Of a stretch of DNA of 64,000 nucleotides, positions 4,161 to 64,000 are shown in pieces. The stretch is from Branchiostoma floridae (lineage: Eukaryota; Chordata; Leptocardii; Amphioxiformes; Branchiostomatidae). The position numbers and the translations under genes are program-made. The DNA is taken from positions 21,587,888-21,651,887 of the forward strand of contig NC_049989.1 of the NCBI RefSeq assembly GCF_000003815.2. The letters run 5' to 3'. Under the pieces are notes generated by a model. The model worked only from the letters and a program-made list of their open reading frames with translations. It was not told the DNA's origin and made no database searches. How positions within the stretch are numbered: position 1 is the first letter of the stretch; the number at the start of each line of letters is the position of its first letter.

Positions 4161-6358
4161 CTGTCAATCAAGGGAAGCAGGCTGTCAATCATAGATGTCA
4201 ATCATGGGAAACAGGCTGTCAATCATACATGTCAATCATGGGAAACAGGCTGTCAATCATACATGTCAATCGAGGGAAACAGGCTGTCAATCACACATGT
4301 CAATCATGGGAAACAGGCTGTCAATCACACATGTCAATCATGGGAAACAGGCTGTCAATCATGCATGTCAAACATGGGAAACAGGCTGTCAATCATACAT
4401 GTCAAACATGGGAAACAGGCTGTCAACCATACATGTCAAACAGGCTGTCAATCATACATGTCAAACATGCTGTCAATCATACATGTCAACCATGGGAAAC
4501 AGGCTGTCAATCACACATGTCAATCATGGGAAACAGGCTGTCAATCATACATGTCAAACATGGGAAACAGGCTGTCAATCATACATGTCAATCATGGGAA
4601 ACAGGCTGTCAATCATGCATGTCAAACATGGCTGTCAATCATTGGAAACAAGCTGTCAATCACGGAGGCAATTTTTAATCAAAAGGGCAGAGAACAAAAG
4701 ACACACATACATACAAACACATACATACACACACACACACACACACAAACACTGACACACTTACATACTTTTGTACATACCTACACACACACACATTTAC
4801 ACATCAATACATACACACACACACACACACACATACACACACACGTTTGTACCTGTATATTTGAGGGGCTGCGATATGCGCGGTCGTGACCGGTTGGCCT
4901 TACCTGTATATGTGAGGGGCTGTGATATGACCGGTCGTGACCGGTTGGTTGTGGTGCATAGTTGTCTGCCTGGTCGCCTGACAGGTCCTCCAGGAAGTTA
5001 GAGGGGACCAGGCCTCTCCGTCCATCCATCTCACCCTGACAGAAGACCAAGATACTTTGAGATTCTTAATGAATATAGAAGTTTAGGAACTTAAGGTATT
5101 ATTAAGTACAATTCCTTCAATTCTAAGGGCGCGTTGGTATTCAGCATGCAAAATGACTTTTTTTCAATCCGGCAAGCAAATTGTACTCAAATATACAATT
5201 CTTAGAATTTTGTAATTGACTTGTTTTTTTGTCTGTGTCAAATTCTAGTATCTGCCCTGGCTGTACGTCATGAACAGCCAAACCTATCAACCAACAAACT
5301 GAACTGTTTGAGTCTCACCATGAAGAATCCATCCTCATCCATCTCTCCCACCACATGGATGATGTCTCCCTGGTAGAAGGGAAGCTCCATCTGTAACAAA
5401 CACAGGGGAGAAATTATCACTTCAGATGGGGAGATCCACTCTATAGGCTGTACTCAATTATCCTCCAAGCAGACTGCAGAATGGCAAAATCCTAAAATCT
5501 TTTAAGCACCAAATTCTGTGGGTGGCACCGTAAAAAGTCCCAGTGATCCACGGAACAGGGAGCTTGAGAAACGTTAAGATTTTGCCATTCTACTTCATTT
5601 TGATTTGACTTTGATATTACTTTCTTAATGTCTTTTGCTATGTGTACAACATGGATGGCTACATTTTAAAGATTAAGCCCATTCTTAAAGTAGTTTGTTG
5701 GGTTGGTAGTATCAACTGAAGGTCAGGTTCTTGTCAAGTCAGTAAGTCAAGGTTTTTGTATCTCTTCAGCTATGTATACTTTCCTTGGGCCTGAATAGGC
5801 AATAATAACTTCTGCCGCTAGAGGGCACTGTGGCAACAAGTTGGTCTTTGATAAAACATGCATTGTGGGTGATATGTCAAAGTTGAAGGCCCCTGAGACA
5901 TAGCGGGACTATGCTCATCGAGCATGCTCAAGACAGACTGGAAGGACAGCTAGCTTGAGACATGTACAAGGTAGGGTTCTTGACCTTTGACATTAGGAAT
6001 TAGGACATTAGTTCAAATCATGAATAGGCTTATTGTAGTAAAGAAAGGGCAGAGAGGTGTAGTTATCTATCAAATAGGAAAAAAAGAGTTTTGGGAAGCA
6101 AACAAAAAGGACCCCCAAGACCCCATAAGAAACCAGATGTTTCCCTGATGTGATGCTGAGTGAGGAGGGGGGTAGGGGGACTTGAGACACAAATGAAGCA
6201 CCTGATAAAAGCTGCCAGCCTCCAGCTTGNNNNNNNNNNNNNNNNNNNNNNNNNNNNNNNNNNNNNNNNNNNNNNNNNNNNNNNNNNNNNNNNNNNNNNN
6301 NNNNNNNNNNNNNNNNNNNNNNNNNNNNNCTCACTCACTCACTCACTCACTCACTCAC

Positions 6359-6391
<33 letters not shown>

Positions 6392-9300
6392 TCACTCATT
6401 CACTCAATCAATCACATGTTTTTCTCAGTGCCTTATAAGCCCATGTGGCCTAGGTTCCCTGAGAGGACAGGATTCATTCGTTCATTCTTACTCTCCCTCC
6501 CCCTCCCTACCCACCTCTGTGATATCCTCCTGGTAGGGAGTCCAGTTTATCGGGTGAGAGGACGTTGTTGGAGTTTCTCAGCTGCTGAAGCCGATAGTCA
6601 TCCTCAATTTCCTCCACCAGATTACAGGGCACCACCCCACACCTGCCATCCACATCCCCCATAAAGAACCCATCCCCGTCCTTGTCTCCATAGACCTGTA
6701 ACAAACAGTATATACATAAACCCCATGTAGAACCCATCCCCGTCCTTGTCTCCATAGACCTGTAACACAAACAGTACATATAAACCCCATGTAGAGCCCA
6801 TGTCTATCTTGTATCATAGACCATTAACAAACAGTACATGTATACACTATATATTTAGTTTATTGCATATTCATGCCCTCCTAGGGCTAAATGCAGTAAG
6901 TCGCATACAAAAGAGTCTGATAAGTAAGCTATTCTATGTTCTACTTACGACTATATTTCTACATGCTTCCTCCCTCTTCTTAAAACATGTGAAGACGAAC
7001 TTACAGAGTTCTTCTATCAAATCATAGTTAACTGATGTCATTATATATTTGAAAAAGTCTTCTTTTGTTAGTTGTGCATATTTCTGTTTTGCAAGCGTAG
7101 TACATTAACAAAGGTATATCTTTATACAGTGAGCATTCTAGAAGAAAGTGCGCTTCATCTTCTATATACCTATAGTTCTTATCACAAAACATACATAATC
7201 TATCATTTGGAGGAGTGCGGGTGTATCTACCGGCTTCAATTTGTAGAATAGTGTCATTGTCATTGTCACTATAGTTACATATCCCCCATGCAGAACCCAT
7301 TCCTATCCTGTTTCAAAAGCTGTAAAACATTGCACAGAATCCCCATGAAGAACCTTCATCTAACTGTCTCCACATAGCAACTATACCCATATGAAAAGAG
7401 TCTGGACACCTGTCCTATAGTTCTATTAATAATAATCATCAGAATAGAGGACCCAACACATGGTATTCTGGGTGTGTGTGCAGAAAGTAAATTTGTCAGT
7501 TTAAGGGTGGTTGGAAGTCAGTAATGGCCCTTGTTCTGCTTTAATATATGATAATGGCCTGCATGGTCTTTTTAGCGAATGCCCACAAACGCCCACTCTA
7601 GAGAAGTCCGCGCTGCACTAATCTCAATTTTTTTGCTTGGAATATGTCCACGTTGTGCTCCCATGTATTAATCCTGAGTTTCAAGTCAATCCATTGACCT
7701 GAAGTGACATAAATCAAAGTTTTCGATTCTCGATGGTCTTTTTAGCGAACGCCCAGCAAAATGTCTTTTTAGCGAATGCCCACTATATCCACAAAAATAT
7801 CGGCCGTCGCGCAACGACACCTAAACCTACCGCCACAAACATGTTCAAGATGGTGTCCCATTGATGTGTACGGAGTTTCCGTGCTTTACAAGCATTTTAA
7901 GTCCCTGTTTTTGGTCAAAATGTACGGCGACGATACTACCATACTTTAACTATAGCAATTCAAAATGGCGGGCACTAGTCATGTGACCTCCTTGCGGGAC
8001 TGTTCTATAAGTATCGCGGGAGGGACTGTTGTAGCATAGCTTCTCATACAACCATTTTAGAGTGAATTCTGAACAAGATTTTCATTTCATAGTGCTATCA
8101 TCTGACTGATATTTACAATGTGGTCATTTTTTCTGTGCTATTATTACCCAGGTTTCAGGAACTTAGTGCAAATTTGGATATTGATTCACCTCAGTGCCCA
8201 ATTAATGTACAAAAGGCTCAGACACATTAGTGTTATAAACCTGAATAGGGGCAGGTNNNNNNNNNNNNNNNNNNNNNNNNNNNNNNNNNNNNNNNNNNNN
8301 NNNNNNNNNNNNNNNNNNNNNNNNNNNNNNNNNNNNNNNNNNNNNNNNNNNNNNNNCCTACAGCAGTCCAGTGAAATGTTCATGATTTACATGTTATACA
8401 GGGCTCGAAATAATGGAAATACTGGCAAAGGTGAAGCTTTGTACCTAACTTTTGACTGTATTTGCACGGGTGTATATATTACTAAATGTAGTGTTATGTA
8501 GTGCACGTAAAGGTACTCTTGTACAGCATATTCTTGAAAAGTATTAGAAAAGTAATAAAATCATAAGTTTGTTGTATTACTTGACAAATGCTTGAATTTT
8601 GATATATTTCAAATAGAGAATAGCAGATTCAATTTCTGAAGAATGACAATAATGTTTGTAATTAGATTTTGTAAACATTCTACTTTACTTCAACCAAAAG
8701 TTTAACCAAAATTTTCAGATCATAAGCACCAGTGCACCTACATTTTCTTCAAAATTGATTTTGAGCCCAGTTATTGGAAGACAAATGTACAAATGTAAAG
8801 ACAAGAGGAAAGAAGATCAGAAGACATTTACAGTTCACCTGTATGATTACTGATACTAAGTAAAATGCTTCTGGTGAGCATGGTGGTACATGTACAAGTA
8901 CATCATACATGACTTCATGCACAAAAGCATAGCAAGCAAGAAAGAAAGGCAGATTGTTAGTACAGGGAATGGAGGGATCCAAAGTGTGTCTACAGGAGCC
9001 TACATGTACATCTACAGGGTGAGTTCCCACATAAGGCCACACATTTTTTTCTTCTTTAAAAGATGAAGGTAAAAATTCAGAAGTTCAAATGAAAACAGAG
9101 GGCTTTGAGAAAACTTAACTCTGAAACTGTGTGTACTAAGATACAGACTTTCCCTCAGACAATGTTGATGGCGATTCTTCAGTTTAGCATTTAATAATTC
9201 TTTGACTTCAAGAACTACCAAATTAGTGTGGTTTTACTTTATGACAAAAACATGTAATTTCCTTTCTAATGACATAATACCCCCATGCCTCTCGGTCAAC

Positions 9301-12300: not shown

Positions 12301-15300
12301 GAGGTGAATCAATATCCAAATTTGCACTAAGTTCCTCAAACCTGGGTAATAATAGCACAGAAAAAATGACCACATTGTAAATATCAGTCAGATGATAGCA
12401 CTATGAAATGAAAATCTTGTTCAGAATTCACTCTAAAATGGTTGTATGAGAAGCTATGCTACAACAGTCCCTCCCGCGATACTTATAGAACAGTCCCGCA
12501 AGGAGGTCACATGACTAGTGCCCGCCATTTTGAATTGCTATAGTTAAAGTATGGTAGTATCGTCGCCGTACATTTTGACCAAAAACAGGGACTTAAAATG
12601 CTTGTAAAGCACGGAAACTCCGTACACATCAATGGGACACCATCTTGAACATGTTTGTGGCGGTAGGTTTAGGTGTCGTTGCGCGACGGCCGATATTTTT
12701 GTGGATATAGTGGGCATTCGCTAAAAAGACATTTTGCTGGGCGTTCGCTAAAAAGACCATCGAGAATCGAAAACTTTGATTTATGTCACTTCGGGTCAAT
12801 GGATTGACTTGAAACTCAGGATTAATACATGGGAGCACAACGTGGACATATTCCAAGCAAAAAAAATGAGATTCGTGCAGCGCGGACTTCTCTAGAGTGG
12901 GCGTTTGTGGGCATTCGCTAAAAAGACCCTCCCCCCCTATCTTCATGTCTACCTTGTCCCTCCAACGACCAGGAGGTCAAGGGACTAGGTGGGTAGATTA
13001 TTTATATAACTCCAGCCTTCATTCATCGCCCTCCAGAAGACAATAAAGTTGGAAACAGCAATTCAAGGCAATCTTCTCTGCAGGTGTAAAATTACAAGTT
13101 TTACAGATGACCGTATTTCTGACCTTGATGAGTTGTCCTTCCCTGAAGGGCAGTTCTTCGTCTGCAGCGTCGGGGTTCGGCGACATGGTCATGGGGTCGT
13201 AATCGAACAGCGCCACGAACCAGCGCGGGGCGGAGCGGTCACCCTCCATACTGTCCCGCAAGGTCACGTCCGACTCCCCGCCTGAACTGTAGTCATCCTC
13301 CTCGGGAAGCTCCGTGTCTGTAAACATAAACACAAACAACAACAAGTTAATGTTACGTCACGTCCGACTCCCCGCCTGAACTGTAGTCATCCTCCACGGG
13401 AAGCTCCGTGTCCGTAAACATAAACACAAACAACAACAAGTTAATGTTACGTCACGTCCGACTCCCCGCCTGAACTGTAGTCATCCTCCTCGGGAAGCTC
13501 TGTGTCTGTAAACATAAACACAAACAACAACAAGTTAATGTTACGTCACGTCCGACTCCCTTCCTGAACTGTAGTCATCCTCCTCGGGAAGCTCCATGTC
13601 TGTAAACAAACAAACAAATAAACAAAGAAACAAGAAGTTAATGTTATGTAACGTCAGACTGTAGTTATCCTCCTCGGGAAGCTCGGTGTCTGTAAACATA
13701 AACACAAACAACATTACATTAGAGGACTAATGTTGTCTGTAGAATTGAAGGAAATGTCAACTTGACTTTGCATGACATACACAATGAATAATAAACTGGA
13801 AGAAAAATTGATGCTCCGATTACTACCGGTTAAGGTATCTAATACTAGCTCAAAAATCATCACTATGTTCTGCATCTACAGCGACCTCCTTTCTTCATCT
13901 TTCTCCACTGTGTTCTGCATCCTGCAAGCTTCCATAGCTCTTGGAGTTTTTTTCTCTAACTTGTAGAAGGGGCTCATAACAAATAGCCACGCCTTCAAGT
14001 ACCAGAGTTATCAACCTACGATTCACGTGTGCATGTTTTCCCTAGAATTACCCATAGAGTAGAACTCCTTACCATCAACCGATCAAGTACAGTAGGAGCA
14101 TCCTCACATAAGAGAGTATTGAAAAAACAAACAAACAAACAAACAAACCTGGCACAGGACTGGCGTGACCTCTCCTCTGGTCCCTCCAGTGTTGGGTGGG
14201 AGGGGTGCGATGACCTTGCTTGACCTTGGTACTGGGCAGCGGAGGTTCCTCAAAGTCTGACTCCGTGTTGGCGCCGGGGTCAAGTTCACCGGGGGGCTGG
14301 TTCAGCTGGAATATAGACATGTACATGTCACCATGGACATTTTGTTTGTTTGTTTGTTTGTTTGGTTCTTATCTAAACTCGATTGTGCTACATTTGACCA
14401 TCAGGGCCGCTTATTGACATTGCCTGGATTGCAGCCATTAACTTTGGGGGTTTGACACAAAAAAGACTTACAGGTTGTTGGCATCCGTCTGTCTCGGAAG
14501 ACAATGGTAGGCAGACGGGTTTTTTTTGTTTTTTTTTTTAAGGCGACCCGTCTGCCTGGCCTGCACTTGGTTTTTTTAAGGTGAGTCCTACAGGGGCAAC
14601 TGTAGACTTACAGGTAGTAACTAACAAACTGCCTCATAAGGCACGTTCACCAGGACTAAAAGAGCGAACTTTGGGAGTTTGTTGTGAGGCACTGATAATC
14701 CAAGTCTAAAAAAGCTGTATGGTAAGAGACTGGTTGGTTTGAGTCATCCAACTCTTCTTCATCATAACTGTGGTGGGTTGTTTAACATGCTCAAGAAGGG
14801 ATCTCCTAGGGACTGGAATCATTGTCAGTACCTAAAAATCACTGTAAAATGATTTCTAAACCATCATCCTCTGTCCCATGACCAAGCATCATAATGACCA
14901 CTTTATACATTCACTTTACAAGACTCTACCTTTGCAGTTAGATGTACAGGTTGTGCAGAGCGGTCCAGCCTGGGAACATCAATGCTCGTGCTGTCACCTC
15001 AGCCTCCCCACACAATACAGTAACCATTTAAACCCATCTAACAAGGTTGTGCATGACTTTTGTGCATGTCAGGGCTTGAAATACTGCACCCAAAATTAGA
15101 ACTGTGCACCCAACATTTTTCAGTGGGTGCACCCAAATATTTTCTTAGGTTTATGTATGGAATACTATTAGGCATCATATTCTGGACATTTAAGTGTTAG
15201 AAAGATAATAAAAATGTCTGTCATGTTACTTGTTTAAGAATTTGATAGCTTGTAACTATGTTTTGTTATTATTTTTTTTTGCCATTCTACTTAAATTTAA

Positions 15301-18300
15301 GTGATGCACCCAAAAATGTTTTAGTGCACCCAATTTTTTAAGCTGGGCGCACCAGTGCACCTATTCCCCAAAATGAATTTCGAGCCCTGACATGTACATA
15401 CCTTTTCAACCTCCTCAAACAATACACTGTAACTATCTACACCCATCTAACAAGGTTGTGCATGATTGTACATACCTTAGCAGTGAGATGTACGGGTTGT
15501 GCCATCTCCAGCCCGGGCACATCGATGCTCATGCTGTCGGAGTTCACTTCTTCCTCCAGATCTTCCTCAGCCTCCTCACACAATACAGTAACTATCTACA
15601 CCTGTCTAACAAGGTTGTGCAGGTACAGGTCAGGGCTCGAAATACTGGGTGTGCACCCAAAATTAGAACTGTGCACCCAACATTTTTCAGGGTGCACCCA
15701 AATATTTTCTTAGGTTTATGTATGGAAAGATATCAATTATACTATTAGGCATCATATTCTGGAGTACATCTAAGTGTTAGAAAGATAATAAAAATGTCTG
15801 TCATGTTACTTGGTTAAGAATTTGATAGCTTGTAACTATGTTTTGTTATTAGTTTTTTTTGTCATTCTACTTAAATTTAAGTGGTGCACCCAAAAATGTT
15901 TGGTGCACCCAATTTTTTAAGCTGGGTGCACCAGTGCACCTATTCCGCAAAATGAATTTCGAGCCCTGACAATGTACATACCTTTTCAGCCTCCTCAAAC
16001 TATACAGTAACTTACACTTGTCTAACAAGTTAAGGTTGTGCATGTACATACCTTTTCAGCCTCCCCACACAATACAGTAGCTTACACTCCTCTAACAAGG
16101 TTGTGCATGTAATAAACTACATACCTTAGCAGTGAGATGTACGGGTTGTGCATGATTGTACATACCTTAGCAGTGAGATGTACGGGTTGTGCCATCTCCA
16201 GCCCGGGCACATCGATGCTCATGCTGTCGGAGTTCACCTCCTCCTCCAGATCTTCCTCAGCCTCCTCACACAATACAGTAACTTACAATCGTCTAACAAG
16301 GTTGTGCATGTGATAAACTACAGTACAGTACATGTTTGTACATACCTTAGCAGTGAGATGTACGGGTTGTGCCATCTCCAGCCCGGGCACATCGATGCTC
16401 ATGCTGTCAGAGTTCACCTCCTCCTCCAGATCTTCCTCAGCCTCCTCTGCGATGTCCGACAGCTCTGAGTGGTTACTGCTGTCTGAGTGGACCTCCGAAC
16501 GGAAGGAGGGGCGGATCTCGGGTTTCTACACATCGAGAAAAACACTCACTATGAATCACTTTACTCATTCACTATGCAATATTTATCGTATCTCGTTCCC
16601 CGTCAGACAAGGCTAGACGTTTGTGCTAACTGCTGAGTGGTAACTGCTGTCTGAGTGAACCTCCTAACAAAAAACATTTTGAGAAAAAGAAAATGGTGAA
16701 GTTGTGCCCTGCTTTAGGCCATGAAGACTTATTCTATGGTTCTAAGGTTTAGAAAATAATTCTGAACAAAAAAATTTGAGTGTGAGGGTAAGTTTGATCA
16801 TTGCTAAAAAAAGAAGATAGTCAGAGTCGAGATTTCCTCCCAGCCTAGATTTCATATTATCCTTTTGCTACATCGTCATTAAAAAATATACAGGTTATTT
16901 TTCTTACACCATTTCTCTCCCCGCCCTTAAAGCCCACCTTCTCCTGCAGTTCCCTGTCCAGACCACCAGGGGGCATCGGGAGACCGTCCTGCGGTGACTT
17001 GGTGACAGTGCGCCCCACGGACGGCTCGAACTGCTCCACTTGCTCGTCTGAAATGTCGCTCTCCGGAGAGCTGTCGTCTGTACGCCCCTCGTACATCATC
17101 TCAATACTCTAAATAACAACAACAACACAACAACAACAAAATTCTGGGAGAGCTGTCGTCTGTACGCCCCTCGTACATCATCTCAATACTCTAAACAACA
17201 ACAACAAAACAACAACAACAAAATTCTGGGAGAGCTGTCGTCTGTACGCCCCTCATACATCATCTCAATACTCTAAACAACAACAACAAAACAACAACAA
17301 CAAAATTCAGGGAGAGCTGTCGTCTGTACGCCCCTCGTACATCATCTCAATACTCTAAACAACAACAACAAAACAACAACAACAAAATTCAGGGAGAGCT
17401 GTCGTCTGTACACCCCTCGTACATCATCTCAATACTCTAAATAACAACAACAACAACAACAAAATTCAGGGAGAGCTGTCGTCTGTACGCCCCTCGTACA
17501 TCATCTCAATACTCTAAATAACAACAACAACAACAACATTCTGGGAGAGCTGTCGTCTGTACGCCCCTCGTACATCATCTCAATACTCTAAACAACAACA
17601 ACAACAACAACATTCTGGGAGAGCTGTCATGTCGTCTGTACACCCCTCGTACATCATCTCAATACTCTAAATAACAACAACAACAACAACATTCTGGGAG
17701 AGCTGTCGTGTCGTCTGTGCGCAACTCGTACATCATCTCAATACTCTAAACAACAACAACAACAAAATTCTGGGAGAGCTGTCGTCTGTACGCCCCTCGT
17801 ACATCATCTCAATACCCTAAACAACAACAACAACAACAAATTCATGTACTAAAAAATCAACACCTCTGGCAATCCTGCCTACATTGTATATACCAACAGT
17901 TACAGCTTGTGCTTTCAGCAAAGCACACTGAGTCATTCTTTAAAGGAACTCAAGCGTGTTGGTTCTTTTACGTGCAGAGGTTGATGCCTAAAGCTAAAAC
18001 CTAAAGTTCCCTCATAGTCATACACTTGGCTATCCGCTCTAAGTGACCATCTGAATTGATGACTGCTATCTCTTACAACATGTCTGAGCTGAGTGACCAT
18101 CAGATTGAACTCCTGTTCATAGATCCATGGAATTTGATCCACATACAGCACCAGAGTATCCTAACTCAGTAACTGTATCAGATTCCTTATTTACCAAACT
18201 TGGCTGTTCTGGCCCGGTCTGTTAACTACCGTACCTGTATTTTCCCAGAATCCGTCCGTACAGTTGGCTTCTCAGGTATCTCCTCAGCGATGACTTGGGA

Positions 18301-21300
18301 AGACGACAAGGTCGGAAGATTTTTGGATCTCTGTTAGAGAACAAAGAATAAAAACCTTAAAGGTCTACTACGCAGTTTTTTGCGCTCAAATTTGAAATAT
18401 TCTAGAACTAAGAAATCTCAGATTTACTACTACTTTTTGACACTTTTTGATACTTTTGTGTCATTATTTCACGTTTGCAATGTAGAGAATTAGCCTACAA
18501 ACATTTCGTCCTACGCGCGCTGTAACTTGTTGACCCCCCTAGTTAGGCACTGGTGAGAATTCAAACAAGAATCAATCATCAACGGTTATTGGTCGGGAAT
18601 CTCCGGTGAGTTCCGGGTGCGTGCGAAAGGTCACGGTGAACCACGTGACCAATCTCCAGGTAGGCTCGGGCAGACTCGGGACTGCTCGGATTTTGTCGGT
18701 GAAGAAACAAAATGGCTGAAACCCAGCGCGGGCGTGCAGATTCCTAGGTTTTCAAACGCGCTCGCACAGGGAAAATATCGACTCCTGACATGCCTTGAAT
18801 AGTGTTCCGTAACGTGGTTGGCTTGATTCAACTAACTATATAAAGAAATGGCCGGAAAATGGATTTTTTGTTTTCAGTTTGAAGCGCAAAAAACTGCGTA
18901 GTAGACCTTTAAGCAAAACCTGATCAACTTCAATTACCAAATTATCAATTCTTGAAGACAGAAACCTGGCACATAGTCTTACATGTATGTACAAAATGTA
19001 CCTGTCAGATAAAATCAGTTTAAAATATGTAGCATATATGAAACAGCTGATGACGTGACAGTGAGAGCATTTCTTAAGACCGAGCAGAGTTTCTTACCTG
19101 GTACAGAATTATCCTAAGACTGTTAAAGATGTCTTACCTGATAGTGCATTTTCTTGAGACTGAGCGGAATGTCTTAACTGGTAGAGCATTTTCTTGAGAC
19201 TGAGCGGAATGTCTTACCTGGTAAAGCATTTTCTTGAGACATGTTTAAGATGTCTTACCTGGTAGAGCATTTTCTTGAGACATGTTTAGGATGTCTTACC
19301 TGGTACAGCATTTTCTTGAGACTGAGGGGAATAACAGCTGACTGTGAGTTGATGGAGTCCCCAGAGCTGGATACGGTCCTGACCAGGATGGGTCCGACTG
19401 TCGTACCCGCTAACGTCGACGTTTCCACGACAACGCTGTCTCCCGTGGGTTCCGAGACCTCCGCCACCTTCCTCTGCCCCGAGTACACGGCGTAACCCTG
19501 CACCACGGCGCCATTGGATGTCCCCGCCGTATCTATGGTAACGGGCAGCCAGCTGATGAGGACCTGGTGCGGCTCCTGTCCGGGCTCTACCGTCACGTTA
19601 ACCGGGGGGTCGGGAGGGCCTGTAGAAACATAGGGGGGTTAGGGGAGTCTGAAGATGGTTGTATGGTGATCTTGGTTATATCAGGACTTAAATCAAAGGG
19701 TTCTGGGTTCGAATCCCTGCTAGGCCTGTGTTGTGACCTTAGGAAATCAAAGGCACAGTGATTTCGTCACTCGGCTCTGGTACAAATACATGTATCAGTT
19801 TCATTTATTGATGCCCTCTCAGATAATAGGTACAGCTGAAGATTCTGTCAGGGTTCTCCACAGCAACAGAGTAGGGGGCTGTAATTTAGATCGGATGCCC
19901 TAAATTGTGATTTGGATCCATATGCTGAGTCTCAACCACTCTTTAGCAACGTTAAAGAACCCATCACATTTATCTAGAGAAGCAGGAGTCCCCCCTGTTG
20001 TACTCACCCCCTGGAAGCGTCTCAAACTGCACGCTGGCGGACGTGTTCTCCTTCCTCTTCCAGGTTTTACTCTCGATGAAGTCCCACAAACTCGTGCTGC
20101 TCTTCTCCGACCGAACTTCAACCTTCTGTAACGTCCCTGGCTGGAGACCTAAAAACAGACACAGTACTCAGTTACCAATCCTAACCCTAATCCTAAACCT
20201 TGCCCCAACTCTGTTCTTTTCCGTCCGAACCTCAACATTCTGTAACGTTCCCGGCTGCAGACCTGCAAGAAAATTTAAAAAAAAAGTTTCTTCAATGGGA
20301 TCTAATCATGTCTTGTACAAAATTGTCCCAGGCTGTAGATCTAAAAACAGACACAGTACTCAGTTACTAATCCTAATCCTAAACCTAACCCTAACTATAT
20401 CTGTTCTTTTCCGTCCTAACCTCAACCTTCTGTAACGTTCCTGGCTGGAGACCTGAAATTAGAAAACGTTTCTTCACTGGGATCTAATCACTTTTCAGGT
20501 TGCAGGTAAATTTGCTAAAAAGTTTTGATTGATCATCAACTCTAGTATTTGTCAAGAAATGAGCAATCGACTGCTCATCGACCAACGAAATAGTTTCGTC
20601 TGTTCTCCTTCAGAAACAGAGTGGTACATTGTAGAAGTTTGACTTTTACGGACACATCAACTAGAGAATCTGCAAAGTATTGATTTTGAGAACAATAAAT
20701 GACGTTTATTAGACAAGGATTTGTGGAGTGCAATATGTACTAGACTGGTCCTGACCTCTGCATGTATGATATCTTACCAGTAATACTGTGCTTGAAGACT
20801 CCTGGCGGCAGGATCTTGGGTTCACCCTCGTTCACCACCAGACTGTGGGCGTGGCTGCTGTTGCTAGGCAACCAGGACAGCTCACATGATGTGGGGGTGA
20901 TCTCTGACACGTGAAGGCTACTGGGGGCCAAAGTCGCATCTAAAGTAAAGGACAATGGAAGAAAGAACAGCAGTTGTTGAATCATCATATCGCCAGTATG
21001 TCAGGTTAACATCAGTCAGCAAGCCGTCGACAGAATGAAAAGAAAATTATAGACATCCACATCAGTGTACAAAATATAAAGCAGACGTTCAGTATGAACA
21101 GAACCCTACTTATGATTGATTTTTGACATTACCATCCCTAAGATAATATCAACATCCTTAAGCTTCAAAGTTTGCTATCTTGCAGGGAGATGCTTCAGAA
21201 TGAAGTCTGAAAAATACAATACAAAAGACACCAAATCCACGAACCTTTCCCGTTTCAAAGTTATATAATTTGGCTACCTTGCCAGGTGATGCTAAAGAAC

Positions 21301-45300: not shown

Positions 45301-46132
45301 ATGTATTTCCCCCCTGGCTCCCACAGATACATGCATATAGCAGGGAATTGAGGACTGGGAAATGAGATAACCTCTGACAACATATTCTAGGACCTTTGAT
45401 CTAACTTCCTGTCAGTGTGCTGACTTGCATTGCCTAGCATGTGGAAATGTATGGAACTACACACTCAGTCTGACAAACATACAAAAATGATATCTCTGTT
45501 TTCACTGAGGTTACAAAATACTTAACAATGGATTATGGAGTCTTTGACTTTATATAGTACATTTGAAAGTACGGTCTGTAGAAAATGTAGCATAGGAAGC
45601 CCTTGCCCAAAACCTCCCTGAATGAAGAAGGGTTGCTGAACAATGTGTAACCAAGCATGGGAGGGTCTAAGTTTAGCTATATAGCTAATATTGTATAGAT
45701 ACATAGAGAAACATTGCAGCACAAAACTATAACCCGAAGTAACTTAACCACATACAACTTGAATCATTGATGTTCTTACAGGCATACATTAACCTATTAA
45801 TACAGATCCTGAATAAGTCAGTATTGCTACATACTAGTACTTGTTTGTACATCCTGCTTCTCTTACAGACTGTGTAGTGTTTTCATATAGAAAGAAATAA
45901 AGGTCAAAGTCTGCATTTAACGAAGTCCTCACAGAAGTCCAGGATGTTAATGTATGCTGACAAGCATACAATCATACAGGGTCACATGCATAGAAAACTG
46001 CAACCATACACTCACATGGATATACACAGTCACATAGTTTTATACACACATCTGAGAGTTGAGCCTGCTACAGACAGCCCTCCGCAGTCTCAGTCCTTCA
46101 CACACACACACACACACACACACATACATATG

Positions 46133-46168
<36 letters not shown>

Positions 46169-46322
46169 CAGGCACACATACACACGCACAGTGACACACA
46201 CAAGCACACACACACACACACACACAAACCTACACACACCTGTAAGTTGAGCCTGCTACAGACGACCCTCTCCATCTGTAGTCTCTCCTTCATGCACACA
46301 CACACACACACGCACACACAAG

Positions 46323-46364
<42 letters not shown>

Positions 46365-49300: not shown

Positions 49301-49833
49301 GGCAAGAAGTCTCTCCCTTCCTTCTGATGAATCCTCCAACTGGGACAAGACAAACACAAGACAAACACAATCAGAGGTGGCAGACTTCACCCCCTTACCC
49401 AAACTGCTACTCTACTCCCAAAGACAGGTCATATGGAAATGTTGCATAATTCATCTTTTTCTTTATAACTCAATACAGCAGGAACATCCTCCTTACATTA
49501 AACTTTAAAGTTACACAGTGCTTCAGCTAAAGAGATACAGAAGCTGGTATATGTTACACCAAAGTGCTGTTATATGCAAAGCTGACCAGTGTGATATTCC
49601 GAAGGACAGTTATACTGGCTATAGAAATATAGATACAGAAGCTGGTGTGATATGAAGAAAGACGTTTATACCAGCCATACAGAATGCTACAGACATAATA
49701 CATACTAGGAATTAGAATACACAGAGATACAGACAGACAAACAGACACACAGACAAACAGACACACAGACAAACAGACAGACAGACAGACAGAGAAACAC
49801 CCATGACTGACCGTGTCCAGGTCCTGAGTACTT

Positions 49834-49916
<83 letters not shown>

Positions 49917-53134: not shown

Positions 53135-53377
53135 ATGTCTAACCTTCGTCGACATTACAACACAACAGTTGGGGCTGCTTTTCATTCAGCACAGTTTTCA
53201 CCGACGGATGTTGAGCTAATGCAAAGAGACTTATCTACTAGTACAATATTCAAAGACATTAGTCAATCTCTGCAACTGGATAGAATTCGCAGGCTAGACC
53301 GCAGGGCGGATACACAGTGGAACAACACGGATATGGGGCAGATACAGATCTATGGTGTACCAGGATGTATTTACTGA
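53135..53377 (+). CDS. Small ORF of unknown nature, 80 codons
   Basis: ATG to TGA, beginning MSNLRRHYNTTVGAAFHSAQ and containing LQLDRIRRLDRRADTQW. Not repetitive and protein-like in composition, unlike other open stretches between the genes. An in-frame stop directly precedes the ATG. It lies next to the RIMBP promoter on the opposite strand. I do not recognise the family. It could be a small gene, the remains of a retrocopy, or chance. Confidence 0.3.
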   Translation: MSNLRRHYNTTVGAAFHSAQFSPTDVELMQRDLSTSTIFKDISQSLQLDRIRRLDRRADTQWNNTDMGQIQIYGVPGCIY

Positions 53378-54974: not shown

Positions 54975-55070
54975 ATAGAAAAATGTTCGCGGTGGTTGTA
55001 AGTTCGCGGTGAAGTGGTCACCGCAAAAACCGCGAACATTAATCCACCGCGAACATTTCTGCATTTACAG

Positions 55071-57229: not shown

Positions 57230-57323
57230 TTACGCCTGCGCTGCCACGTTCCTGACCACCTGGAAAGCTGCGATCACGGAACTGAGCTGGAGTTTCTCGT
57301 TGGTTCCTGCCGACAATCGGTAC
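57230..57323 (-). CDS. RFC5: RFC5 terminal exon
   Basis: 94 nt, phase 2 in, to [23 protein letters not shown] then [10 protein letters not shown]. Vertebrate end: YRLSVGTNEKIQLSSLIAAF. Acceptor ttgcag|GTACCG. Confidence 0.95.
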
Positions 57324-60300
57324 CTGCAAACAGACAACACACAACTGTCAGCGGACAATACTGTAAATGGACACAGTTCAATCTACTTCTATCTACAAAA
57401 CACCCTCTCAGTCTAGCCTGGGTACCATCCGTATCAGGGGTGCCTAAGCATTTGCACGAACCCTATGAAATTCGTACGAATATTATGTGATACACACGAA
57501 TCACTATGCAAAAACGCACGAATATTATGAAATTCGCACGAATCACTATGCAAAAACGCACGAATATTATGAAATTCGCACGAATCACTATGTGACACAC
57601 ACGAACCTTATGTGATTTGCACGATCCTTATGCGAAATTGCGCAACCACTGGCGGGGTCACATGACAAACGGAGCGGGATTTTCAAGATGGCGGCTTCGC
57701 CGCTTCGGCGACTGAAAATACGATGTAACACGCCGAAATGAAGCTAAACAGTAGCTCACAGGCTATCAAATACATCTTTGCGACGGTAAATGTCCATTCC
57801 ATGCCTTGAAATATAAATATCTCGGGTAGAAACGCTCAAAATCATGCCTCCTCCCGGCCGCCGTTTTTGCATAAGGATCGTGCAAATCACATAAGGCTCG
57901 TGTGTGTCACATAGTGATTCGTGCAAATTTCATAAAATTCGTACGATTTCGCATAGTGATTCGTGCGAATTTCATAGTATTCTGCGTTTTCGCATAGTGA
58001 TTCGTGTGTATCACATAATATTCGTACGAATTTCATAGGGTTCACGCAAATGCTTAGGCACCCCTGCGTATTCTACCGGGGTTCCTTACACTCGCATATT
58101 TTTTAGGGGTAGCGAGTGTAAGGAGCACCGGTAGAAAACAGATGGTACCCAGGCTACACTCAGTCCTCTTTTGGGCCTCGTTTGAAGCAACAGGAAGACA
58201 TAGCGCCATCTGGCCCTGTGTAACTAGGCAACATTAATTTGGTAAAGCCACACTTTGAGGTAAAATTTCTAGTCTGGGTAAAAATCCACGCAACAAATAT
58301 TTTGGATAAAGGTTTTGGGGAAATCAAGGAAAAAATGGGCAGGAAAAAAAACTTAACATATTCAAACCTTAAAAGTTTGTACCACGGTACTATGTCAAAC
58401 TGCTCATTGGTTTTCTAGTTCATCACAATTTGCTGAAGATACAACAAGGTAAGCACAACTTACTCCACATCTGCCATCTTCTGCAACAGAACCATCTTCA
58501 CAGCCATCGGGAAATCAACTGGGGTAAACAAACAAATAAACAATCAGCAATTGTACACAATAAACATCATGATATATTTTATATTTCATCCGTCCATCCC
58601 CCAATTCTTACAATCACTCATCCATCCATTTTCCCATTCATTCGTTCATTCATTCATTCATCCTTTCACTGTTATCCATCCATCCAACCGTCCTTCCATC
58701 CAATGTCTCACTCATCCAATTACAATTCACTCATTCACTCATTCATCCAATTGACTCATAAAAATGAGGATAATTTGGTTTTGCATTGATCCATATATTA
58801 GTCATTCATTCATTCATTCATTCATTCATTCATTCATTCATTTATTCATTCATTCATTCAGTCATTCATTCAGTCATTCATTCATCTGTCTGCATACTTA
58901 CCCATTATCATTCATTTTCATTCTTTATTGCATCCATCCATCCATCCATTCAATGAACCAACCATTCATTCATTCGTTCATTTGTCGACTAATTCAACCA
59001 TTTATCCATCTATCCATTTCCTTGCCCACTTACTTCTGTGCACGAACAGATGCACCTCTGTCAGGAACAACAACAACAACAACAACACCATCCGGTGCCA
59101 GCTTACTTCTGTACACGAACAGGTGCACCTCCGTCAGGAACAACAACAACAACAACAACAACATCTGCTTACTTCTGTGCACGAACAGATGCACCTCCGT
59201 CAGGAACAACAACAACAACAACAACAACATCTGCTTACTTCTGTGCACGAACAGGTGCACCTCCGTCAGGATGTCCTGCAGAGCCAAACCCTTCAGCACC
59301 TTCAGCTGAAAGATGTCTGGGCAGTGTTAAGGAAGGGTTTTCTTAAAGACATGATGACAGTGAAAGAGTAAAGTCAAAAGGACACTTAGTAAATGTATAA
59401 TAGAAGCACGAAAGTATAAATTTAGGAATAAAAATGTTAAAGAAAATAGATAAAATGCAAAACAACCAAAAATATTCTGCATGATAAGGAAGGGATTTTT
59501 TTATCAACATGAATGTGGCAGAAAAAAAGTAAAAAAGACACGTACATACATATTACAATGTTCAGTAACAAAATGGACACAAAAATTGGACCCAGATTTT
59601 CAACCGTCTAAGTCCGACTCCAGTCTTTATCAGAAATGAGAAATCTGCCACATGGGAGTCCAGATCTAGATTCTGTGAACTTGAAACTGACATCTTGCTT
59701 TATAATTTCTACACCACAGATGAACTTTCAAACTAAAAGGATACTGTTATAAGCTGTTGTGAAATTCTCGTTAAGCATCCAGTTAACGATGTTAGCGATG
59801 TCAGATCGAAGCGGCTGTCCGGTGACCAGGTAAACGTTGTCCTCGTCCACAACATCGTGGGCCATCGATGTGCTCTGCAATAAAGGAAAGAAGACATCAG
59901 GATTGAGGCCAGAGTAAAGGTGAAAACTATGTGATGGCCGCATCGGTTAATCAAGGTCCACAATTGTGCCTTTACCTAATTAACATTTGCAAATAAGCTA
60001 AATTCAAGATGGCAGGCATTGACCAATGGACATGAGCAAGGCATTGAATTTTTACCTTTCTAACACACTTATTTTTAGTTGGATTTGTCCATGTTGTCTA
60101 CAAAGCAAAGGAGCCACTCTAAAGATCAGTGAATGAATAAACAAATCACTATTTTGGACTTGAAAGATCAAACAAGGTTTGACAGGGTAAGCAATATCAA
60201 CTTCTTAGCACCCGTGACTTATCATTTGTATTTACATGTATTTATCCATGCATTACTGTAAATGCATTTAAGTTCGCAGGGATTTAATTTCGTGGTAGCG

Positions 60301-62176
60301 GGAAAAGGGACTTTTCGCGGTGGATTTAATTTCGCGGTTACACCATAGACTGCAGCCTAATACCACAATAGAAAAATTTTTTGCGGTGGATCTAAGTTCG
60401 CGGTGAAGTGGTCGCCGCGAAAACCGCGAACATTAATCCACCGCGAACATTTCTGCATTTACAGTATCTATCATCATGCCTACAAGCTTCTTAAGGAAGT
60501 TCTTAAGAAGAGTCTGACCTGCAGGATGTTTAAGACTCGTCTCATGTCTCCGTTAGCCAGCTGAAGGATCGCTTTCTTCCCATCTTCTGTTACATCCACG
60601 CTGGAATAACACAACACAACTGTTGAAGTACTATAACATCACTTAAATCCCAGTAGTCTTACTTTACGTTTCGTCGACTCTGGAACAACAGTACTGTCAC
60701 TTCACTTCAATACCAGTGGTCTTATCTAACAGGAGGGGGAAATAAGCTAAAGTTGTCTAAAACTGTCTGTCTTGGAAGACAATGGTAGGCGGACGGGTTT
60801 AAGGCGACCCGTCTGCCTGGCCTGCACGTGGGTTTTTAAGGTGAAGGAGGGGTGTGCACTCCCTTCTCCACCCTCTCGTCTACTGCAGCACTAAATCTCA
60901 CAGGGGCAACTGTATGCAACGTGTAAGACGGCCCCAGCAGATGCAGATTTGTTGTTTGGAGTTTCCGTCTCCGTCTTCCGATCAAGGATGCAAGGGGTTC
61001 CTTCTACCCTGACTCATGTGTCATGGCGGGTGCGTCATGCCCAAACATGCCCCTATGGCATGTCTAAAACTAATTTCTATACAAAATAGTCCCTTCCTAC
61101 CTACCCTATTTTTTTCAAGACTGAAACAGGAAACACAACATTTTCTTCCTAGGCCTAATACATTGATAACATATATTCGTGTAGTCGTCAGTTCATGGCA
61201 AAGAGGTCACTATTGACACCCCAAAAAAAATAGATAGACAATGAAATAGACGGAAATGTAGATTCCTGAGGATAAAATGACAGATTTGACAAGGAAATTT
61301 GACAATATAGGCTCCAGAATAATGGGGGGATGGAGATGAATTTAAAGCAGGAGCCATGGCAACTACCCGAGCCAACTACCCTATTCCTTAAAATGACAGA
61401 TTTAACTACATGGGCTCCTGAATAGCCCCGGCAATGCCACTAGCCATTGTTCCTGCCCGGCTTTGTTTGTTTGTTTGTTTGTTTGTTTGTTTTGCACCAA
61501 CACATGCTTCAGTAAACCTCACTTTTCTTCCTGGATGACGTGCTCCAGTCTGGGCAACATCTGATCCACACCAAGCGGGCCGAACCTGGGCACAGAATAC
61601 AGATGAAGTTTATCATGTACAGATGCATGTAAGGCACATAGTTCCCATTGAATATAAACAATCCCTATGTAAGACACAGGGTAGATACACCTTCAACTAA
61701 GATATATGATTCCTTATTGTTATCTATTTTTGGGTCCGTGGCTTATGTTTATGTTTTGTCTCAGTTATTGTCTCCATCTCTATTGTCATTATGTATTCTT
61801 CTGTTATTTCTGTTTATTCAAAATACAATAAATATTTTTTTTTTTAAAAAGAAAAAAAAGATATATGATTCCTATGTGCAACATACATGTAAACATCACA
61901 TATGCCACATCATTCCTTTGTAAGATACACAGTGAAAACTTGAGACACACATTTTCCATATGAGATATCTGGATCCTATACTTAGGCTTATTCTGTGAAT
62001 GTAGCTTTGACAAGTGTTAACTTATACACATGCAGCTTTGGCAGGTGTTCTACAGGTGTGACTTCCTAGCACAGCTTACCTGAACCTGGTGCACCTGGAC
62101 TGGATAGCAGGGATGATCTTGGACAGGTAGTTACAGATGAGGCAGAACCGTGTGTTCTCTGTAAACTTCTCCATAA
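57230..62176 (-). CDS. RFC5: Replication factor C subunit 5, 3' half (seven exons, 5' truncated by window edge)
   Basis: Exons 62080-62176, 61523-61585, 60519-60600, 59734-59874, 59239-59305, 58464-58518 and 57230-57323 join in one frame for 599 nt, about 198 residues to TAA at 57230-57232. RFC5 is a small AAA+ subunit of the clamp loader that places PCNA on DNA, and is also found in alternative clamp-loader complexes. Visible landmarks: sensor-1 region [19 protein letters not shown], the SRC motif ([13 protein letters not shown]), sensor-2 [12 protein letters not shown], then the C-terminal collar ([55 protein letters not shown]). These match vertebrate RFC5 rather than RFC2, 3 or 4. The first roughly 145 residues (Walker A and B) are outside the window. 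Confidence 0.95.
57413..58157. mobile_element. Nested foldback elements in an RFC5 intron
   Basis: Outer inverted ends agcctgggtaccatc / gatggtacccaggct. Within it, 57436-58067 has ends caggggtgcctaagcatttg / caaatgcttaggcacccctg flanked by cgtat on both sides. The inner arms are long, built of repeated cgaatattatg and cacgaatcactatg motifs. Confidence 0.85.
58464..58518 (-). CDS. RFC5: RFC5 exon (collar)
   Basis: 55 nt, phase 1 in, phase 2 out: [17 protein letters not shown]. Acceptor ccccag|TTGATT, donor TGGA|GTAAGT. Vertebrate RFC5: VDFPSSVRIHLLTKMADIE. Confidence 0.93.
58600..58990. repeat. (CATT)n / (CATC)n rich tract
   Basis: Runs of cattcattcatt and catccatccatc in an RFC5 intron. 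Confidence 0.9.
59028..59238 (-). repeat. RFC5 exon donor-edge array, three extra copies
   Basis: Units of about 62 to 75 bp with the last ~35 nt of exon 59239-59305 ([10 protein letters not shown]), the donor AGAA|GTAAGC and (ttg)n in gene sense. Confidence 0.95.
59239..59305 (-). CDS. RFC5: RFC5 exon (collar)
   Basis: 67 nt, phase 0 in, phase 1 out: [20 protein letters not shown] then HR. Acceptor tttcag|CTGAAG, donor AGAA|GTAAGC. The 3' part with the donor is repeated three more times at 59028-59238. Confidence 0.94.
59734..59874 (-). CDS. RFC5: RFC5 exon (start of collar domain)
   Basis: 141 nt, phase 0/0: [47 protein letters not shown]. The donor is weak (TTTTA|GTTTGA at 59728-59733). 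I chose it because it keeps phase and the five-residue spacing to LKVLKG seen in vertebrates; the alternative A|GTATCC at 59747 breaks the frame. Confidence 0.85.
60256..60464. mobile_element. CTGTAAATGCA MITE, intact copy
   Basis: 209 bp, inverted ends ctgtaaatgcattta, TA on both sides, interior built of ttcgcggtgg motifs and their complements. Confidence 0.9.
60519..60600 (-). CDS. RFC5: RFC5 exon (sensor-2)
   Basis: 82 nt, phase 2 in, phase 0 out: [20 protein letters not shown] then RVLNILQ. GDMRR is the sensor-2 arginine region. Acceptor ttccag|CGTGGA, donor CAG|GTCAGA. Confidence 0.93.
60768..60920. repeat. Interspersed repeat shared with 14486-14640
   Basis: Same modules in the same order and orientation as the copy at 14486, with a different middle part. 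Confidence 0.75.
61085..61158. mobile_element. Half copy of the 50745 foldback element
   Basis: tccctacctaccc-like sequence, then actgaaacaggaaacacaac and attttcttcctaggcct, as at the right end of 50745-51140. Confidence 0.65.
61454..61490. repeat. (TTTG)n microsatellite
   Basis: About eight tttg units in an RFC5 intron. Confidence 0.85.
61523..61585 (-). CDS. RFC5: RFC5 exon
   Basis: 63 nt, phase 2/2: [20 protein letters not shown]. Acceptor gcccag|GTTCGG, donor GAAAA|GTGAGG. Vertebrate RFC5 reads FGPLTPELMVPRLEHVVEEE. Confidence 0.93.
62080..62176 (-). CDS. RFC5: RFC5 exon with sensor-1 and SRC motif
   Basis: 97 nt, phase 1 in, phase 2 out. Acceptor gtccag|TTATGG, donor [30 protein letters not shown] then [12 protein letters not shown]. 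Its first ~53 nt with the acceptor are the unit of the array at 62177-64000. It is the only copy that keeps the donor-side half, so it is the functional one. Confidence 0.95.
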
Positions 62177-64000
62177 CTGGACAAACACAACAGGACAATC
62201 AGGGATGGCAGACTTCACCCCTTTACTTAGGTAGTTACAGATGAGACAGAACCGCGTGTTCTCTGTAAACTTCTCCATAACTGGACAAACACAACAGGAC
62301 AATCAGGGATGGCAGACTTCACCCCTTTACTTAGACAATCAGGGATGGCAGACTTCACCCCTTTACTTAGGTAGTTACAGATGAGGCAGAACCTGGTGTT
62401 CTCTGTGAACTTCTCCATAACTGGACAAACACAACAGGACAATCAGGGATGGCAGACTTCACCCCTTTACTTAGACTATCAGGGATGGCAGACTTCACCC
62501 CTTTACTTAGGTAGTTACAGATGAGACAGAACCGTGNNNNNNNNNNNNNNNNNNNNNNNNNNNNNNNNNNNNNNNNNNNNNNNNNNNNNNNNNNNNNNNN
62601 NNNNNNNNNNNNNNNNNNNNNNNNNNNNNNNNNNNNNNNNNNNNNNNNNNNNNNNNNNNNNNNNNNNNNNNNNNNNNNNNNNNNNNNNNNNNNNNNNNNN
62701 NNNNNNNNNNNNNNNNNNNNNNNNNNNNNNNNNNNNNNNNNNNNNNNNNNNNNNNNNNNNNNNNNNNNNNNNNNNNNNNNNNNNNNNNNNNNNNNNNNNN
62801 NNNNNNNNNNNNNNNNNNNNNNNNNNNNNNNNNNNNNNNNNNNNNNNNNNNNNNNNNNNNNNNNNNNNNNNNNNNNNNNNNNNNNNNNNNNNNNNNNNNN
62901 NNNNNNNNNNNNNNNNNNNNNNNNNNNNNNNNNNNNNNNNNNNNNNNNNNNNNNNNNNNNNNNNNNNNNNNNNNNNNNNNNNNNNNNNNNNNNNNNNNNN
63001 NNNNNNNNNNNNNNNNNNNNNNNNNNNNNNNNNNNNNNNNNNNNNNNNNNNNNNNNNNNNNNNNNNNNNNNNNNNNNNNNNNNNNNNNNNNNNNNNNNNN
63101 NNNNNNNNNNNNNNNNNNNNNNNNNNNNNNNNNNNNNNNNNNNNNNNNNNNNNNNNNNNNNNNNNNNNNNNNNNNNNNNNNNNNNNNNNNNNNNNNNNNN
63201 NNNNNNNNNNNNNNNNNNNNNNNNNNNNNNNNNNNNNNNNNNNNNNNNNNNNNNNNNNNNNNNNNNNNNNNNNNNNNNNNNNNNNNNNNNNNNNNNNNNN
63301 NNNNNNNNNNNNNNNNNNNNNNNNNNNNNNNNNNNNNNNNNNNNNNNNNNNNNNNNNNNNNNNNNNNNNNNNNNNNNNNNNNNNNNNNNNNNNNNNNNNG
63401 ATATGAGACAGAACTGCGTGTTCTCTGTAAACTTCTCCATAACTGGACAAACACAACTGGGCAATCAGGGATGGCAGACTTCACCCCTTTACTTAGACAA
63501 TCAGGGATGGCAGACTTCACCCCTTTACTTAGGCAATCAGGGATGGCAAACTTCACCCCTTTACTTAGGTAGTTACAGATGAGACAGAACCGCGTGTTCT
63601 CTGTAAACTTCTCCATAACTGGACAAACACAACAGGACAATCAGGGATGGCAGACTTCACCCCTTTACTTAGACAATCAGGGATGGCAGACTTCACCCCT
63701 TTACTTAGACAATCAGGGATGGCAAACTTCACCCCTTTACTTAGGTAGTGACAGATGAGACAGAACCGTGTGTTCTCTGTAAACTTCTCCATAACTGGAC
63801 AAACACAACAGGACAATCAGGGATGGCAGACTTCACCCCTTTACTTAGACAATCAGGGATGGCAAACTTCACCCCTTTACTTAGGTAGTGACAGATGAGA
63901 CAGAACCGTGTGTTCTCTGTAAACTTCTCCATAACTGGACAAACACAACAGGACAATCAGGGATGGCAGACTTCACCCCTTTACTTAGACAATCAGGGAT
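62177..64000 (-). repeat. RFC5 exon acceptor-edge array, at least seven extra copies
   Basis: Each unit has acceptor gtccag and the first ~53 nt of exon 62080-62176 ([17 protein letters not shown]), then jumps into agtaaaggggtgaagtctgc. A 37-bp sub-unit (gacaatcagggatggcagac, ttcacccctttacttag) occurs one to three times per unit. Continues past the window. Confidence 0.96.
62537..63399. other. Assembly gap (863 N)
   Basis: Sized gap inside the RFC5 exon-edge array, so array length is uncertain. Confidence 0.95.

What the first reader, a model, noticed from the sequence alone, without database searches (positions are those of the whole stretch)
4161..64000. Exon-edge minisatellites: many splice junctions of both genes are tandemly copied into the adjacent intron
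In about 15 of 43 exons, one exon edge together with its splice site forms the repeat unit of an intronic array. Some copy the donor (RIMBP exons 2, 5, 6, 11, 23, 26, 29, 35; RFC5 59239). Others copy the acceptor (RIMBP 20, 22, 25, 28, 31, 32; RFC5 62080). At exon 36 the array abuts the acceptor without copying exon sequence. The real exon is always the end copy, and no unit contains both edges. Two unrelated neighbouring genes show it, so it looks like a property of the genome. I recall a report of minisatellites over exon-intron boundaries at the amphioxus Adh locus; the density here seems exceptional.
Basis: partly seen in the sequence, partly recalled or inferred. Interest (0 to 1): 0.9.

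Follow-up and report, generated by a model that had tools for sequence, protein, structure and literature searches.

The report
Intron arrays copied from lancelet exon edges
In two neighbouring lancelet genes, about fifteen exon ends together with their splice sites have been copied into strings of repeats in the next intron; the phenomenon was known one gene at a time, but the density is unusual here and the copies still carry the mark of selection on the real exon, as if exon and repeats keep trading sequence.

Summary
I rebuilt RFC5 (7 exons in the window) and RIMBP/TSPOAP1 (36 exons) and checked them against Branchiostoma proteins. Of 83 splice junctions, 13 have junction-spanning copies in the adjacent intron under a strict test, 15 under looser ones; one claimed case (RIMBP exon 23) was not found. 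Such arrays are already described in amphioxus as "mirages" (Adh3, globins, PGBD5): new members of a known kind. By base coverage junctions are not enriched (15.7% against 18.7-21.8% for intron positions). Counting each array once, the excess is about 2.6-fold here and nil in 16 kinesin genes (3 of 158 junctions, 2.2 expected). So the density is local.

Two things look new. Differences between intronic copies and live exon are mostly synonymous (74 of 120 events; at most 42% expected if copied once and left alone) and copies keep GT/AG: array and exon edge seem to exchange sequence, with selection on the end copy. And the intronic part of one unit is a dispersed 25-40 nt sequence ending in branch-point-like CTGAY; at both of its loci in the window it sits 19-28 nt upstream of a confirmed acceptor.

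The parts
62080..62176 (-). RFC5 exon 1 of the window (live copy)
62125..64000 (-). RFC5 exon-1 acceptor array; copies at 104, 244, 1266, 1442, 1618, 1758 nt; exon-side match 52 nt (40 in one copy), intron-side match 54 nt including the dispersed motif; N gap 62537-63399
59239..59316 (-). RFC5 exon 5 (live copy)
59029..59271 (-). RFC5 exon-5 donor array with (GTT)n; the two shifts tested (66 and 132 nt) are in frame and stop-free
49721..50099 (-). RIMBP exon 2 (49977-50099) and donor copy at 165 nt, across an (ACAG)n tract
46861..47985 (-). RIMBP exon 5 (47824-47985) and donor array, 11 copies, 43 nt of exon in each
46130..46513 (-). RIMBP exon 6 (46406-46513) and donor copy at 166 nt, with (CA)n
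29265..30318 (-). RIMBP exon 11 (30196-30318) and donor array; 7 copies at the strict threshold, 11 at the looser one
24018..24289 (-). RIMBP exon 20 (24018-24101) and acceptor array, 9 nt of exon per copy, (GTT)n
21811..22971 (-). RIMBP exon 22 (21811-21998) and acceptor array, only 6 nt of exon per copy
20008..20482 (-). RIMBP exon 25 (20008-20148) and diverged acceptor copies, not called by the repeat finder
19064..19619 (-). RIMBP exon 26 (19300-19619) and donor array, 4 copies
16938..17840 (-). RIMBP exon 28 (16938-17108) and acceptor array, 9 copies
15476..16525 (-). RIMBP exon 29 (16346-16525) and two donor copies (16166-16264, 15476-15574), 102 nt of exon matched
13124..13713 (-). RIMBP exon 31 (13124-13317) and acceptor array, 4 copies
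6515..6839 (-). RIMBP exon 32 (6515-6695) and acceptor copy at 64 nt
4850..5035 (-). RIMBP exon 35 (4904-5035) and one donor copy, 45 nt exon + 3 nt intron
4029..4663 (-). RIMBP exon 36 (4029-4160) and the array beside its acceptor (no exon copy found)
62196..62220 (-). dispersed motif, 25 of 25, ending 19 nt upstream of the RFC5 exon-1 acceptor; 14 places in this array within the window
49368..49392 (-). the same motif, 24 of 25, solitary, ending 28 nt upstream of the RIMBP exon-3 acceptor (49339)

Best explanation
These are amphioxus 'mirages'. A short intron-end segment that happens to span one splice junction is tandemly duplicated; junctions beside a microsatellite are hit more often, and one unit contains a dispersed repeat. 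The duplication does no harm because the spliceosome uses the copy next to the full exon, so the rest is intron (inferred). The array and the live exon edge then go on exchanging sequence by unequal exchange or conversion (inferred). Purifying selection on the end copy therefore leaks into the array: copies keep GT/AG and vary mainly at synonymous sites. The high density here is a local feature of a repeat-rich locus, with at most a modest pull of junctions as such.
For: In RFC5 the exon-edge stretches that are copied align without gap to the RFC5 chain 6vvo_C, so they are ancestral coding sequence and copying went from exon to intron. Only 7 of 57 copies would keep the frame open if used. The protein records P0001-P0005 (RFC5) and P0121 (RIMBP) show no added residues at the mirage edges; they are predictions and I saw no RNA. 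Microsatellite runs of at least 16 nt lie within 120 nt of 6 of 15 mirage junctions and 4 of 68 others (P = 0.0018). Exchange: 22 arrays, 74 synonymous and 46 other events; 27% synonymous expected for unconstrained copies with the arrays' own intron-side spectrum, at most 42% for copies made once. Variants present in only some copies: 53 of 91 synonymous, 95% bootstrap over arrays 47-70%. The 9 arrays outside the window agree (31 of 49; window 43 of 71). Intron-side changes show no 3-nt rhythm (37/320, 34/317, 27/332). Splice dinucleotides differ in 1 of 100 cells against 132 of 900 for neighbouring intron cells in 12 window arrays (P = 8e-6); in the larger set 4 of 164.
Against: No clear polarity: copies farther from the exon are not reliably more diverged (exon side 6 of 9 arrays positive, mean rho 0.17; intron side 4 of 9, 0.07), so simple outward growth from the exon is not supported. 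Exchange itself was not observed. Thirty private changes are non-synonymous, two of all events are nonsense, and L007 is mostly non-synonymous (1 of 8 synonymous). The globin paper reports boundary units excluded from homogenisation in one gene. The exon frame in 9 of the 22 arrays rests on my own gene finder.
Confidence: 0.6

Rival explanations
1. One-off duplication followed by dead amplification: the junction was copied once, the array grew by its own slippage and no longer exchanges with the exon. Synonymous excess arises only because the live exon itself drifts at synonymous sites.
For: Simplest reading; nested periods and variants shared by several copies in some arrays; no polarity.
Against: It predicts about 27% synonymous among variants carried by only some copies; seen 53 of 91 (P = 3e-10 if events are independent; bootstrap over arrays 47-70%). 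It predicts at most 42% over all events; seen 62% (P = 1.7e-5).
Confidence: 0.2
2. The copies are themselves under selection, as back-up, decoy or alternative splice sites, so that exon-like sequence and GT/AG are kept.
For: Low rate of amino-acid-changing differences (dN/dS-like ratio 0.23) and splice dinucleotides nearly intact (4 of 164).
Against: Using a copy would shift the frame or add a stop in 50 of 57 cases; nonsense changes occur in copies; the predicted protein records do not use them.
Confidence: 0.1
3. One reading: lancelet junctions are a preferred target of tandem duplication genome-wide, through some act of transcription or splicing.
For: 13 seen against 4.9 expected in the window; pooled with kinesins 16 against 7.1, P = 0.003; mirages at 3 junctions in 16 kinesin genes.
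Against: Kinesin junctions alone: 3 seen, 2.2 expected (P = 0.38). Base-coverage test shows no excess. Window upper bootstrap bound gives P = 0.076.
Confidence: 0.1
4. Assembly artefact: repeats stacked or misplaced by the assembler.
For: The window has four N stretches and two contigs that seem out of order; the RFC5 exon-1 array runs through an 863-N gap.
Against: Copies differ from each other at many sites, most arrays lie in continuous sequence, and resequencing supported the repeats of the PGBD5 mirage (passage).
Confidence: 0.03

Closest known systems
Amphioxus 'mirage' minisatellites (Adh3; globin BflGb6 and BflGb9; PGBD5; troponin C)
   Same: Tandem copies of one exon-intron boundary, 5' or 3'; splicing reported as undisturbed (passages of PMC3087553 and PMC3902484).
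   Different: One or two per gene in the passages I saw; here 15 in 64 kb. The globin paper reports cluster boundaries excluded from homogenisation in BflGb6, whereas here the exon copy seems to take part. My searches showed no genome-wide count in their listings.
Intron gain by tandem genomic duplication (AGGT duplication)
   Same: Tandem duplication that creates extra splice sites (passages of PMC3443670).
   Different: There a duplicated exon segment becomes a new intron; here copies lie inside introns and no new intron was shown.
Internal tandem repeats at exon-intron boundaries of human segmental-duplication genes
   Same: Repeats over exon-intron boundaries, variable in number (passages of PMC2812944).
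   Different: Those were reported to alter splicing and make new introns in young paralogs; here predicted proteins are unchanged at the copied edges.
Introner elements
   Same: A dispersed sequence tied to splice sites (definition recalled; my search for introner plus amphioxus listed one unrelated paper).
   Different: Introners are whole near-identical introns (recalled); the motif here is conserved over only about 25-40 nt in most of the 20 loci compared.

Membership tests
Mirage minisatellites | Unit includes an exon-intron boundary | tested here: met
   13 of 83 junctions strict, 15 with two short-sided cases
Mirage minisatellites | Live exon at the end, copies in the adjacent intron | tested here: met
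   All 15; end copies agree with predicted proteins
Mirage minisatellites | Correct splicing despite extra sites | not testable with these tools
   No RNA at hand; only indirect: 50 of 57 copies would break the frame
Mirage minisatellites | Length instability between haplotypes | not tested
   One assembled sequence only
Mirage minisatellites | Cephalochordate genome | tested here: met
   Branchiostoma proteins 98-99%
Intron gain by tandem duplication | A new intron absent from relatives | not tested
   No relative's genome was read; protein alignments only
Introner elements (for the dispersed motif) | Whole introns nearly identical at many loci | tested here: not met
   Conservation fades about 10 nt either side of the 22-mer in 20 loci; exception: L071-L073 are long copies of one repeat

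The most novel reading that the evidence does not exclude
Lancelet introns share a dispersed 25-40 nt 'branch-site cassette' (core GGGTGAAGTCTGCCATCYCTGAYTG) that has been copied onto the 3' ends of unrelated introns. There it would serve as the branch point, and it sometimes becomes part of the unit of an acceptor mirage. Splice sites would thus be spread as small modules, and mirages would be one outcome of the spread.
Probability: 0.3. Interest if true: 0.8.

Novelty: new member of a known kind. Interest (0 to 1): 0.52.

Why it matters
Mirages put several near-identical splice sites side by side and the cell must pick one, so a gene with over a dozen is a natural test of how exons are defined. 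If selection on the exon really leaks into the array, each array is a record of exchange between coding and intronic DNA and a measurable route by which exon ends can change. The shared motif, if it acts as a branch point, would show splice-site parts moving between genes.

Tried and rejected
Junction-target bias as a strong genome-wide effect: not supported in the kinesin sample. Outward polar growth from the exon: not supported. The motif as an inverted terminal repeat: no opposite-strand partner in any of the 50 distinct loci (1.2-3 kb each) scanned. The motif as a known RNA family: no Rfam hit at gathering score in 7 sources. The motif as a general lancelet branch-site consensus: no; apart from the RFC5 exon-1 and RIMBP exon-3 acceptors, none of the 43 exon starts of the window scores above 16 of 25 and none of 84 predicted kinesin acceptors above 15, while random intron stretches reach 17. 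Eight pre-set random 10-kb stretches held too few well-supported exons to be used; the only junction copies there were at a predicted 22-nt exon inside a tandem satellite in L062. A myosin search was answered but no sequence could be added, so it is unused. RIMBP-23 donor copies: not found. The first mismatch tallies counted shared ancestry many times or included misaligned ends and Ns; they were replaced by trimmed event counts.

Dropped rows: L050 was dropped from the event count because no copy passed the exon-side filter. RIMBP-22 and RIMBP-35 do not enter it; RIMBP-2 and RIMBP-20 enter without an event. The six motif loci in the event count are those that showed junction copies, so they are not a random sample. 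Of the kinesin predictions, two mirage pseudo-exons and three unsupported exons were removed before counting.
Full report
SETTING. The window lies in a 513-Mb, 431-contig genome. Its RFC5 and RIMBP/TSPOAP1 proteins match Branchiostoma records at 98-99%, so this is a lancelet, most likely B. floridae (inference). I trained a small splice-aware gene finder on clear open frames and corrected it by hand. The result is 43 exons on the - strand with one open frame per gene. RIMBP matches the predicted protein P0121 at 1663 of 1695 aligned residues. RFC5 aligns to the RFC5 chain 6vvo_C (human, recalled) over 194 residues without a gap, and to the Branchiostoma records P0001-P0005 without a gap; P0006 and P0007 lack part or all of exon 2, which is not a mirage exon. 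Pfam finds SH3, FN3, RIMBP2-type Ig and Rep_fac_C domains.

THE OBSERVATION. I took 60 nt centred on each of 83 junctions and aligned it to the adjacent intron. Thirteen give strong junction-spanning copies (scores 38-60); for the other 70 no top-scoring alignment spans the junction, and shuffles reach 19 at most. Looser tests add RIMBP-22, with 6 nt of exon, and RIMBP-35, with 3 nt of intron. The claimed RIMBP-23 donor is not there. Copy numbers run from 1 to 11. The matched exon part is 6-102 nt and constant within several arrays; it is 43 nt in all 11 copies of RIMBP-5. The live exon is always at the end and no unit holds a whole exon, which any viable gene would show.

IS IT MORE THAN CHANCE? 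Two nulls give two answers. By base coverage there is no excess: 18.7% of one-sided tests at 1500 intron positions find a copy, and 21.8% of intron positions under the 40-nt test, against 15.7% of junctions. But an array of ten copies arises from one place, so the fairer null counts each array once. That coverage is 5.9%, giving 4.9 expected against 13 seen (P = 0.0012; 0.076 if the upper bootstrap value is used). As an outside sample I used a kinesin-motor search of the genome (134 matches) and fetched 16 genes: 79 exons, 158 junctions, 3 mirages, 2.2 expected, P = 0.38. One of these three was already visible in the search table as repeated partial matches before an exon. Window and kinesins differ (Fisher P = 1e-4); pooled, 16 against 7.1 (P = 0.003). 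So mirages occur elsewhere, the window is unusually rich in arrays (21.8% of intron positions against 3.9% in the kinesins), and any pull of junctions is modest. Mirage junctions more often have a microsatellite run close by (6 of 15 against 4 of 68, P = 0.0018).

WHAT THE COPIES REVEAL. If copies were dead, their own changes should fall evenly on codon positions. I counted events, not cells, over 22 arrays: 13 in the window, 3 in kinesins and 6 at motif loci. Changes seen in all copies: 21 synonymous, 8 not. Shared by some copies: 18 and 8. In one copy only: 35 and 30. With the substitution spectrum of the same arrays' intron sides, 27% synonymous is expected for unconstrained copies, and at most 42% for a copy made once and compared with a constrained exon; the total is 62% (74 of 120, P = 1.7e-5). 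Variants found in only some copies should be at 27% under any model of unconstrained copies without exchange; they are at 58% (53 of 91), 95% bootstrap over arrays 47-70%. Window (43 of 71) and other loci (31 of 49) agree, though single arrays do not all: L007 has 1 of 8. Intron sides show no rhythm of three. The GT/AG of copies differs in 4 of 164 cells. Yet copies tolerate nonsense changes (2 events), and 50 of 57 would break the frame if used. I therefore think the array and the exon edge belong to one family that keeps exchanging sequence, with selection acting on the end copy. Outward growth from the exon would be one form of this, but distance from the exon does not predict divergence (6 of 9 positive, mean rho 0.17), so two-way exchange, perhaps between alleles, fits better. 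This step is inference.

A SHARED INTRON-END MOTIF. The intron part of the RFC5 exon-1 unit was found elsewhere in the genome. With up to 2 mismatches the 22-mer has 261 + 267 places and its reversed control none (100 places listed). It ends in CTGAY, a branch-point-like pentamer (consensus recalled). In the window it has two loci: the RFC5 exon-1 array (14 places, the last ending 19 nt before the acceptor) and RIMBP exon 3 (solitary, 28 nt), both sense; no other stretch exceeds 17 of 25. The chance of two loci both falling 15-30 nt before an acceptor is about 3e-5 by simple placement. The exact matches listed form 15 clusters (sites within 5 kb merged); I examined 13. Seven have an acceptor 15-30 nt downstream: L001 22, L002 28, L003 22, L005 25, L021 23 and L037 23 by the gene finder, and RFC5 19 from the curated model. 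L038 has its live exon at 6, L086 at 37, L085 at 77; L004, L007 and L017 have none predicted. In 40 of the places listed (L039-L058, L067-L086; L085 and L086 are in both sets) the gene finder puts a sense acceptor at 15-30 nt in 5. A plain acceptor score of at least 5 at +10 to +40 occurs in 12 of 40 against 7.0% of 1715 control windows (P = 1.2e-5); with cut-offs 4 and 6 it is 15 and 6 of 40 (P = 8e-4, 2e-4), and none reaches 7. Against the idea: for most of the 40 no exon is predicted nearby, in L067, L070 and L084 the better predicted gene is antisense, and L071-L073 are copies of one longer repeat, 92-93% alike over the 1.2 kb fetched. In the 20 loci compared, conservation fades about 10 nt to each side of the 22-mer. 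It could be a fragment of a mobile element that works as a branch site when it lands well; that is the bold reading, unproven.

KNOWN OR NEW. Mirages are known in amphioxus: I read passages of PMC3087553 and PMC3902484, which between them cite the Adh, retinol dehydrogenase, presenilin and troponin C cases; the 2002 Adh paper itself was not held. In the listings of my searches I saw no genome-wide count and no codon-position test of copies; the motif was not searched for by its letters, and most subscription papers are not in the library. I file the arrays as new members of a known kind. The selection imprint and the motif are the parts a specialist may find new.

Noticed in passing
window 6330-8256 and 8357-9672 (between N gaps at 6230, 8257, 9673): RIMBP exon 33 (9371-9483) lies before exon 32 (6515-6695) on the gene's strand, but reading frame and protein P0121 need 32 before 33: the two contigs are probably swapped in the scaffold.
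   Followed up: partly
window 9918-11781: Two inverted 51-bp arrays meeting near 10960; units carry donor-like CAGGTGAGT and acceptor-like TTACAG; no exon of the gene model is involved.
   Followed up: no
window 27076-27175 in RIMBP exon 14: A 51-bp tandem repeat inside coding sequence; 17 residues (675-691) there are missing from the B. lanceolatum (P0122) and B. floridae x belcheri (P0123) records.
   Followed up: partly
window 15125-15395, 15689-15971, 30515-30789, 43605-43879, 51532-51799: A dispersed repeat of about 270 bp with five copies in the window, also in L003.
   Followed up: no
L098 donor at 3222, L096 acceptor at 511, L091 donor at 561 (gene-strand coordinates): Mirages in three kinesin genes of a sample not chosen for them; in L098 5 of 5 and in L096 7 of 8 differences from the live exon are synonymous.
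   Followed up: yes
L058 and the RFC5 exon-1 unit: Units look like an exon piece plus a complete GT-AG mini-intron of roughly 50-57 nt, since the motif region begins with a donor-like GTAAGG or GTAAAG (read by eye).
   Followed up: no
L071, L072, L073: Three copies of a repeat of at least 1.2 kb (92-93% alike) that contains the motif, on contig C4 between 2.9 and 3.7 Mb.
   Followed up: no
window 1715-2398: 38 copies of an 18-bp unit at 97% match, open in several frames, outside the gene model.
   Followed up: no
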